From assembly GCA_005281725.1 (NCBI GenBank), contig SSBO01000012.1, positions 14,409,704 to 14,473,703 of the forward strand: 64,000 nucleotides of DNA, given 5' to 3'. The stretch's first letter is position 1. Every line of letters begins with the position of its first letter. This document shows positions 14,663 to 17,445 of the stretch, in pieces. This DNA comes from Wuchereria bancrofti (lineage: Eukaryota > Nematoda > Chromadorea > Rhabditida > Onchocercidae). The translations under genes and the position numbers were made by a program. Below the pieces are notes generated by a model. The model ran no database searches. It was not told the DNA's origin and saw only the letters and a program-made list of their open reading frames with translations.

Positions 14663-15295
14663 TAAATAAATAAAATTAATGCAATAAAATCTTATTGATA
14701 AAAAAAAATAATAATCGATATATTGATAAAAAATAATTCATTAATGTGGAAAAATTAATGTTTGCGTGAAGAGGAAGTAATATAATATTTTGCAATGAAA
14801 TTAAAGTTCAGTAATGTTTGCACTTATTTTTATGGCTTTAAATATAGCTAAATTGTTGTTTTTTTCCCAGACAAATGTAAATTAAATTATTTATTTAAAT
14901 TAAAATAACTGAATGTAATAGATAAATTCAAATATTATAACGATCTCAAATAATGAATTAACCAAAGTTTTCTTTTTTTCTTTTTATTATCATTTAAAAT
15001 ATGACAGTGGTATGTATTAGAAAAATCCATCAGATCAAATTATCAGTCGTTTCTACTAGTGTAATAGCAATAAGTTTAAAGAGGAAAACTTATATTTCAC
15101 TTTAATTAAAAGCTTTTCAAATATTTGAATTATTAATTTCAAAGTCCAATTTTTGCATAATGAAAGAAATGTTAAAAAAGATTGGGCTTCGAAGTTTTAA
15201 ATAAATTTCAACAATAATTTTCCTATATTATGATTAAATAATAACAATATTGTAATAATAATAGTAATAATGATAATGATAATAATAATAATAAC

Positions 15296-15327
<32 letters not shown>

Positions 15328-16040
15328 TGGTAATAGTAATAATAGTGACAAATGTATCTTTAAGACTGCATTACTTTTTTTTTTGAAAATAGTCAGTAGT
15401 TTTTTCATTTATTCTTCTTTTCGTTTTTATTTCTTATTTTCAGTCTTTATAAGACAACTAAATTATTAATCATAATATAGGAAAATTATTGTTGAAATTT
15501 ATTTAAAACTTCGAAGCCCAATCTTTTTTAACATTTCTTTCATTATGCAAAAATTGGACTTTGAAATTAATAATTCAAATATTTGAAAAGCTTTTAATTA
15601 AAGTGAAATATAAGTTTTCCTCTTTAAACTTATTGCTATTACACTAGTAGAAACGACTGATAATTTGATCTGATGGATTTTTCTAATACATACCACTGTC
15701 ATATTTTAAATGATAATAAAAAGAAAAAAAGAAAACTTTGGTTAATTCATTATTTGAGATCGTTATAATATTTGAATTTATCTATTACATTCAGTTATTT
15801 TAATTTAAATAAATAATTTAATTTACATTTGTCTGGGAAAAAAACAACAATTTAGCTATATTTAAAGCCATAAAAATAAGTGCAAACATTACTGAACTTT
15901 AATTTCATTGCAAAATATTATATTACTTCCTCTTCACGCAAACATTAATTTTTCCACATTAATGAATTATTTTTTATCAATATATCGATTATTATTTTTT
16001 TTTATCAATAAGATTTTATTGCATTAATTTTATTTATTTA
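14663..16040. repeat. large perfect inverted repeat, left of the N
   Basis: Arms 14663-15237 and 15466-16040 are reverse complements with a constant coordinate sum of 30703, so there is no net insertion or deletion across 575 nt. The stretches I compared were identical. The 228-nt spacer 15238-15465 contains an interrupted AAT microsatellite. The right arm stops exactly at the N at 16041. The perfect identity and the contact with an ambiguous base argue for an assembly or amplification fold-back rather than an old biological repeat. No coding sequence is supportable inside. Confidence 0.95.
15241..15345. repeat. interrupted AAT/TAA microsatellite
   Basis: Runs of TAA with occasional CAA, TAG or GAT units form the spacer of the first inverted repeat. 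The Leu-rich ORF on the minus strand here (15223-15408) is a product of the repeat, not a gene. Confidence 0.85.
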
Positions 16041-16041
16041 N
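16041..16041. other. ambiguous base N, probable assembly junction
   Basis: This is the only non-ACGT base in the window. It separates the end of one perfect inverted repeat from the start of a second, unrelated one. It most likely marks a gap or contig join. Confidence 0.85.
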
Positions 16042-16816
16042 TATTGCTAACACTTCTTTTAAAACCAAAAGGCAAATTTAATTTTCTTACCGAAATTTTC
16101 AAAAAATGAAAAAAGTGTCAACATTTTTTCAAATTAACCAATTATTTGTTACATTATATGTGTATATTTCTTTATTTTTTAAAAATTCTCGCACCATTTT
16201 ATAAATGATTTTGATGGAAAAGTAAAATTCTTTCCTTCCGTTATCATCAGAAAACTAAAGTGAAAAATTCTGGAATGACAACTTTTCCGAGTTCCCTTTC
16301 TCCTTTTTTCTGGCATTAAAATGAAAACAAAAAAAAAAAGAAAAAAAGAAGAAAGCACAAATGAAGGAATGGCGGAATGAAGATTGATTGCATCAATCAT
16401 TAACCTTGAAATACCGAATAACCAATACCGCTAGCAAAGTGCGCAATTTCTTTTTCTTTCTTTTCTTTTTTCTTTTTTTTTTTTGAATAATTGCTACAAG
16501 TTGAATTAATAGTCGTCGAAAACCATCAGGAATATGAAAATAATCGGAAACAATTGAAGCATTTCAATAAATATCTAAACAACTTAGGAAAAAAAGAAAA
16601 CTTAACTAATGAAATAAACAATAATAGATGTATGTAATAAATATTAAACATTAAAAATTATTAATTGAATTTATATAAGACTTATAATTATAATCTGAAT
16701 TGGTGCAAAAACTTATAATTATTTAGAAAAGAAAGTAAAAGCAAAGAATATGGTCAATTAACAGCAATATAAAAAAAAATGATAATAATAACAATAGTAA
16801 TAGTAATAGTAATAAC

Positions 16817-16873
<57 letters not shown>

Positions 16874-17445
16874 TTCATTAGTTAAGTTTTCTTTTTTTCC
16901 TAAGTTGTTTAGATATTTATTGAAATGCTTCAATTGTTTCCGATTATTTTCATATTCCTGATGGTTTTCGACGACTATTAATTCAACTTGTAGCAATTAT
17001 TCAAAAAAAAAAAAGAAAAAAGAAAAGAAAGAAAAAGAAATTGCGCACTTTGCTAGCGGTATTGGTTATTCGGTATTTCAAGGTTAATGATTGATGCAAT
17101 CAATCTTCATTCCGCCATTCCTTCATTTGTGCTTTCTTCTTTTTTTCTTTTTTTTTTTGTTTTCATTTTAATGCCAGAAAAAAGGAGAAAGGGAACTCGG
17201 AAAAGTTGTCATTCCAGAATTTTTCACTTTAGTTTTCTGATGATAACGGAAGGAAAGAATTTTACTTTTCCATCAAAATCATTTATAAAATGGTGCGAGA
17301 ATTTTTAAAAAATAAAGAAATATACACATATAATGTAACAAATAATTGGTTAATTTGAAAAAATGTTGACACTTTTTTCATTTTTTGAAAATTTCGGTAA
17401 GAAAATTAAATTTGCCTTTTGGTTTTAAAAGAAGTGTTAGCAATA
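16042..17445. repeat. large perfect inverted repeat, right of the N
   Basis: Arms 16042-16615 and 16872-17445 are reverse complements with a constant coordinate sum of 33487 over 574 nt. An identical 73-codon ORF on opposite strands (16400-16179 and 17087-17308) confirms the symmetry. The 256-nt spacer holds an uninterrupted TAA tract at about 16816-16872. The left arm starts directly after the N. The near-equal arm length to the neighbouring palindrome (574 against 575) suggests a common technical origin. Confidence 0.95.
16781..16872. repeat. TAA microsatellite
   Basis: Roughly twenty consecutive TAA units follow mixed AAT/AGT units. It forms the spacer of the second inverted repeat. Poly-Ile ORFs on both strands (16754-16996 and 16779-16961) are artefacts of this tract. 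Confidence 0.9.

What the first reader, a model, noticed from the sequence alone, without database searches (positions are those of the whole stretch)
14663..17445. Twin perfect palindromes of equal arm length meeting at the only N
Two unrelated perfect inverted repeats (arms 575 and 574 nt, spacers 228 and 256 nt) lie back to back and touch at a single N. Both spacers hold a TAA microsatellite. Biological palindromes this long rarely stay identical or come in matched pairs. The simplest reading is that both contig ends beside a gap were extended with fold-back sequence, so the true locus is left arm, spacer 1, unknown TAA-rich gap, spacer 2, right arm, and about 1.15 kb of the window is spurious. 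If real, the locus would give long perfect double-stranded RNA.
Basis: partly seen in the sequence, partly recalled or inferred. Interest (0 to 1): 0.75.

Follow-up and report, generated by a model that had tools for sequence, protein, structure and literature searches.

The report
Fold-back assembly error at a gap
Two back-to-back perfect palindromes in a nematode chromosome sequence are almost certainly a genome-assembly error at an unresolved gap, in which each contig end was followed by a reversed copy of itself, and not a real DNA structure.

Summary
The window lies on a 24.1 Mb contig of an 86.5 Mb nematode genome. I sampled 29 stretches of it, window included (308,281 non-N bases). Perfect local repeats of at least 200 nt number 12: 10 end exactly on an N or contig end, the others 20 and 80 bases away. 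Shorter ones do not follow the rule: 5 of 8 lie over 1.7 kb away. Seven of 11 single Ns are flanked by near-identical copies, so a single N usually marks a failed contig join. Both palindromes start at the outer edge of a TAA microsatellite, a plausible contig end. The inner arms plus the N total exactly 1,150 bases and add no sequence of their own. Best reading: each contig end was extended past the microsatellite, then given a reverse copy of its own last ~575 bases, with one N left. No raw reads were available, so this is strong inference. Not a real feature.

The parts
14663..15237 (+). left outer arm: probably the real end of the left contig
   Evidence: 575 nt identical to the reverse complement of 15466-16040; continuous with single-copy flank to the left
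15237..15344 (+). AAT microsatellite, about 36 copies, starting at the inner end of the left arm
   Evidence: Tandem Repeats Finder
15345..15465 (+). unique part of spacer 1, possibly true sequence beyond the microsatellite
   Evidence: 15346-15465 found once in the genome
15466..16040 (-). left inner arm: probably spurious reverse copy of the left contig end
   Evidence: the arm has only 2 matches in the genome, both here
16041..16041 (.). single N: scaffold join that was not resolved
16042..16615 (-). right inner arm: probably spurious reverse copy of the right contig end
   Evidence: 574 nt identical to the reverse complement of 16872-17445
16616..16777 (+). unique part of spacer 2, possibly true sequence before the microsatellite
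   Evidence: 16616-16775 found once in the genome
16778..16873 (+). AAT microsatellite, 32 copies, ending at the inner end of the right outer arm
   Evidence: Tandem Repeats Finder
16872..17445 (+). right outer arm: probably the real start of the right contig
   Evidence: continuous with the right flank

Best explanation
This is an assembly artefact at a scaffold gap. Two contigs that flank a TAA-rich, very AT-rich stretch were joined across a gap. A gap-filling or end-extension step extended each end by 228 or 256 bases (microsatellite plus about 121 or 162 unique bases). It then ran back onto the opposite strand of the same contig end, copying about 575 bases in reverse, and left a single N where the two sides failed to meet. 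Shown: the geometry, the perfect identity, the absence of any sequence in the inner arms that is not in the outer arms, the flush position on the N, the start at the microsatellite edges, and the association of long perfect repeats with Ns elsewhere in the sampled assembly. Inferred: that the original contig ends lay at the microsatellites, and that one software rule set both arm lengths (a fixed flank length, or a shared fill budget of 1,150). The cause of the first jump, a chimeric read or a software orientation slip, is not determined.
For: Perfect arms of 575 and 574 flush on both sides of one N. Of 12 perfect repeats of >=200 nt (copies within 10 kb) in the sample, 10 end exactly on an N or contig end and 2 lie 20 and 80 bases away. 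A BLAST list (>=98%, >=100 bp, within one stretch, low-complexity filter on) gives 12 duplications, 11 of them with an end within 2 bases of an edge and 1 at 80; only 0.043% of bases lie within 2 bases of an edge. Single Ns in L003 separate direct copies of 1,077, 155 and 1,384 aligned bp, which look like undetected contig overlaps. In L023/L003 a 1,349-base piece between two Ns is a perfect reverse copy of sequence beyond the second N. Contig C7 starts with a 405-base inverted copy at base 1 (L019). The arm ends coincide with the TAA array edges on both sides. The arms have no other long copy in the genome. In passages of the GapFiller paper (PMC3446322), gaps are filled one nucleotide at a time from left and right edge, and close only if the two extensions overlap and match the estimated gap size; such a rule could give equal fills on both sides.
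Against: No other single N in the sample shows a fold-back of its own flank on both sides: 1 of 11, this one. Four of 11 single Ns have no near-identical copy of >=100 bp within their own stretch. Perfect repeats away from edges do exist: inverted repeats with arms of 192 nt (1,855 bases from the nearest N run, though at the end of a duplicated block whose second copy ends 80 bases from that run) and 67 nt, and direct repeats of 134, 126 and 116 nt. The assembly software and reads are unknown, so the exact step is not shown. A k-mer filler needs a read that contains the jump, and the sequences beside the two arms at each jump share little.
Confidence: 0.93

Rival explanations
1. The fold-backs were present in sequenced molecules: chimeric inverted fragments, for example from whole-genome amplification or missed hairpin adapters, at a low-coverage AT-rich site. 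The assembler copied them at both contig ends. This is a variant of the artefact reading with a different cause.
For: Artificial palindromes are frequent in amplified DNA: 47.8% and 43.6% of reads in the two amplified Arabidopsis samples visible in the passage, against 0.5% in the unamplified control, where missed SMRTbell adapters are also named as a cause (PMC6218980, passages). A loop of 228-256 nt fits a strand that snapped back (inference).
Against: Random chimeras would not give arms equal to within 1 nt on both sides, nor start at the microsatellite edge on both sides. A missed adapter would leave almost no loop (recalled).
Confidence: 0.25
2. Two real, recent perfect palindromes, for example hairpin loci that make long double-stranded RNA, or inverted duplications, happen to lie beside an assembly gap.
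For: Arms are perfect and could fold; nothing in the sequence alone forbids it. One perfect 192-nt inverted repeat elsewhere in the sample is not at an N.
Against: Two unrelated palindromes of equal arm length that both end exactly on an N; long perfect repeats in the sampled assembly occur at or near edges; no other copies found, so not a repeat family.
Confidence: 0.03
3. The true locus is left arm, one TAA array, right arm. Both spacer uniques (15345-15465, 16616-16777) are also misplaced, taken from other TAA-flanked places that were not assembled. This too is a variant of the artefact reading.
For: Both arrays have the same orientation and begin or end at the arm edges. The unique parts do not overlap each other.
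Against: The unique parts have no other copy found in the assembly, and the interruptions in the two arrays differ (array letters printed).
Confidence: 0.2

Closest known systems
Duplicated contig ends at scaffold gaps (undetected overlaps, overfilled gaps)
   Same: Near-identical copies flush on both sides of a single N, as at L003 2005, 3692 and 5747
   Different: Here each side copies itself in reverse instead of copying the other side
Artificial palindromes from whole-genome amplification or missed adapters (PMC6218980, passages only)
   Same: Inverted copy of a neighbouring stretch, absent from the real genome
   Different: Equal arm lengths on both sides of an N, and arm ends at the microsatellite edge, point to a software rule
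k-mer gap filling from both edges (GapFiller, PMC3446322, passages only)
   Same: Both edges are extended by steps, which could give equal fills and an unclosed remainder if the two sides do not overlap
   Different: Which tool was used for this assembly is unknown; the single N as its output is recalled, not tested

Membership tests
assembly fold-back artefact at a gap edge | the duplicate ends exactly at an N or contig end | tested here: met
   arms end at 16040 and 16042 beside N 16041
assembly fold-back artefact at a gap edge | the extra copy adds no sequence of its own | tested here: met
   575/575 and 574/574 identical as reverse complements
assembly fold-back artefact at a gap edge | the same class of defect recurs at other gaps of the assembly | tested here: met
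   10 of 12 perfect repeats of >=200 nt end on an edge, 2 of these 10 being the window's own; other flush inverted copies at L023 and the start of C7; but the twin fold-back itself at only 1 of 11 single Ns
assembly fold-back artefact at a gap edge | raw reads do not support the inner copies (depth, pair orientation) | not testable with these tools
   no reads held
transposable element with long inverted ends (fold-back element, MITE) | more than one copy in the genome | tested here: not met
   575-nt arm: 2 matches, both here; right arm plus flank: 2 long matches here and 4 short ones of 37-46 nt elsewhere
transposable element with long inverted ends (fold-back element, MITE) | target-site duplication outside both ends | tested here: inconclusive
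   each palindrome has one outer end at the N, so the flank on that side is missing
hairpin siRNA locus | transcription across both arms and small RNAs from the stem | not testable with these tools
   no RNA data held
known structured RNA | match to an Rfam family | tested here: not met
   0 matches at gathering score in the whole window

The most novel reading that the evidence does not exclude
A nematode chromosome really carries two adjacent, unrelated, perfectly homogenised palindromes of equal arm length whose arms begin at TAA microsatellites. They would be made by a microsatellite-triggered fold-back duplication, and the gap remains because the structure blocks sequencing.
Probability: 0.02. 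Interest if true: 0.6.

Novelty: not a real feature. Interest (0 to 1): 0.07.

Why it matters
It is a quality warning. In the sampled part of this assembly a single N is usually (7 of 11) beside duplicated or inverted contig ends. Tandem duplications, inverted repeats, small inversions and copy-number calls that touch single Ns should be treated as suspect until checked against reads. As biology it is ordinary.

Tried and rejected
Chance: rejected. Repeat family or transposable element: rejected because no other long copies of the arms, spacers or flanks were found. Structured RNA: no Rfam match at gathering score in the window. Coding content: of 13 open frames in the window sent to Pfam (3, 10; chosen by hand), only 10153-10584 (-) matched above its cut-off (DuoxA, E 5.6e-11); one match was below its cut-off (PsbH, E 0.024, taken as noise); the right-arm frame 17057-17308 matched nothing. 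Finding the true sequence between the two sides in another contig: the unique spacer parts were found only here. Naming the species: the exact 22-nt spliced leader (recalled as nematode SL1) occurs 243 times against 0 for the reversed control, so it is a nematode. The G+C of the window (29.3%) and the 24.1 Mb contig suggest a filarial worm, which is a guess. Brugia malayi in its published chromosome assembly is unlikely, because that paper reports only eight gaps (PMC7181701, passages); the four filarial assemblies tabulated in PMC12546972 (passages) have other sizes and scaffold counts. No paper was found that states this assembly (listings of the searches). Searches for published descriptions of this kind of gap defect and passages of three papers listed gave nothing specific to fold-backs at single Ns.

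Full report
What is there. The window contains one N, at 16041. On its left, bases 14663-15237 and 15466-16040 are perfect reverse complements of each other (575 nt), separated by 228 nt. On its right, 16042-16615 and 16872-17445 are perfect reverse complements (574 nt), separated by 256 nt. With one gap allowed, the first pair extends to 580 aligned bases. The two pairs share no 14-mers directly and 6 in reverse orientation. Five random sequences with the same dinucleotide make-up have longest inverted repeats of 17-19 nt, and the rest of the window has at most 21.

Anatomy. Reading outward from the N, each side is the same: a reversed arm, a unique stretch, an AAT microsatellite, then the outer arm. 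The microsatellites are 15237-15344 and 16778-16873. They begin and end at the inner ends of the outer arms (15237 and 16872), within 1-2 bases. The reversed copies therefore start at the point where a contig could naturally have ended, and they leave out the microsatellite and the unique stretch. The two inner arms and the N together span exactly 1,150 bases. They contain nothing that is not already in the outer arms.

Genome context. The window is bases 14409704-14473703 of a 24,139,319-base contig (C12) in an assembly of 86,486,585 bases in 108 contigs. The exact 22-nt spliced leader that I recall as nematode SL1 occurs 243 times, and its reversed control 0 times, so this is a nematode. No other long copy of the arms, the two spacer uniques or the outer flanks was found in the genome (one search lists four extra matches of 37-46 nt). 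The tool warns that its DNA search skips simple repeats and very common words.

Test against the rest of the assembly. I fetched 28 further stretches (20, 8). With the window this gives 29 stretches, 343,704 bases, of which 308,281 are not N, with 21 N runs; 11 of these are single Ns. The long N runs may be gaps or withheld sequence; I cannot tell which. Two counts were made. First, a BLAST list within each stretch (at least 100 bp, at least 98% identity, low-complexity filter on): 12 duplications, 5 inverted and 7 direct; 11 have an end 0-2 bases from an N run or contig end, and one direct copy lies 80 bases away. Only 132 of 308,281 bases (0.043%) lie that close. Second, a recount with exact matches, adjacent stretches joined, copies less than 10 kb apart, simple sequence left out: 8 perfect inverted repeats of at least 60 nt and 12 perfect direct repeats of at least 100 nt. 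Of these 20, 13 end exactly on an edge, two lie 20 and 80 bases away, and five lie more than 1.7 kb away: inverted arms of 192 and 67 nt, direct copies of 134, 126 and 116 nt. Of the 12 that are at least 200 nt long, 10 end on an edge, including the two in the window, and the other two lie 20 and 80 bases away. So the rule is strong for long repeats and does not hold for short ones. The 192-nt inverted repeat is the main counter-example; it lies at the junction of a 1,764-base exact duplication whose second copy ends 80 bases from an N run.

The single Ns one by one. Of 11, four separate direct copies (L003 2005, 3692, 5747; L022 2454), two belong to the L023 cluster (7605, 8955), one is the window's, and four show no near-identical copy of at least 100 bp within their own stretch (L006 7618, L012 559, L017 9962 with 38 bp only, L024 7741). 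With adjacent stretches joined, L012 559 also has beside it a 124-nt stretch with an exact copy about 8.8 kb away. At L023 the piece between the two Ns (1,349 bases) is a reverse copy of sequence beyond the second N, while 1,058 bases before the first N are repeated directly after the second.

Interpretation. In the sampled part of this assembly a single N usually marks a join where contig ends overlap, duplicate or are misplaced. The twin palindromes look like the reverse-orientation form of that defect. Equal arm lengths on both sides, both ending on the N, would be an odd coincidence for two real palindromes, but they follow if one software rule governed both ends. Two such rules fit. One is a fixed flank of about 575 bases copied in reverse from each contig end at the microsatellite, which explains both the length and the starting point. 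The other is a filler that adds bases step by step from both edges up to a common budget of 1,150, which explains the length alone. [quoted passage not shown] That an unclosed gap is then left as one N is my recollection, not something I read there. The reverse jump itself needs a chimeric read or an orientation slip; artificial palindromes are common in amplified DNA (PMC6218980, passages). I could not decide between these.

Limits. No reads, no RNA data and no second assembly were available. The twin form was seen once among 11 single Ns, so its frequency in the genome is unknown. Many of the edge-associated repeats come from one cluster (C12 about 14.339-14.357 Mb), so they are not all independent. 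Whether the two unique spacer parts really lie between the arms is open. The software and the species were not identified.

Verdict. About 1,150 bases (15466-16615) are most likely spurious. The real-palindrome reading keeps about 2-3%.

Noticed in passing
window 10153-10584 (-): Open frame with a match to DuoxA, dual oxidase maturation factor (E 5.6e-11).
   Followed up: no
L003 932-7131 (C12 about 14.351-14.357 Mb): Three single Ns, each between near-identical direct copies (1,077, 155 and 1,384 aligned bp): probably false tandem duplications from unmerged contig overlaps.
   Followed up: partly
L023 6544-10000 and the start of L003: A 1,349-base piece between two single Ns is a perfect reverse copy of sequence beyond the second N: probably a redundant contig placed the wrong way round.
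   Followed up: partly
L022 974-3569 (contig C10): Sequence right of the single N repeats the left side at about 98.6-99.3% identity but skips about 370 bases: perhaps the other haplotype placed in tandem.
   Followed up: no
L019 1-405 and 4440-4844 (start of contig C7): The contig begins with a 405-base perfect inverted copy of sequence about 4 kb inward.
   Followed up: no
L024 9361 to L023 3211 (C12 about 14.339-14.343 Mb): A 1,764-base exact direct duplication ending 80 bases before an N run, with perfect inverted repeats of 192 and 252 nt inside or beside it; origin unclear.
   Followed up: partly
L024 1-7729 and L003 1330-9574: Two stretches about 20 kb apart are alike at 85-89% over several kb: a diverged local duplication that may be real.
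   Followed up: no
L009 8160-8226 and 8681-8747: Perfect inverted repeat with 67-nt arms, away from any N.
   Followed up: no
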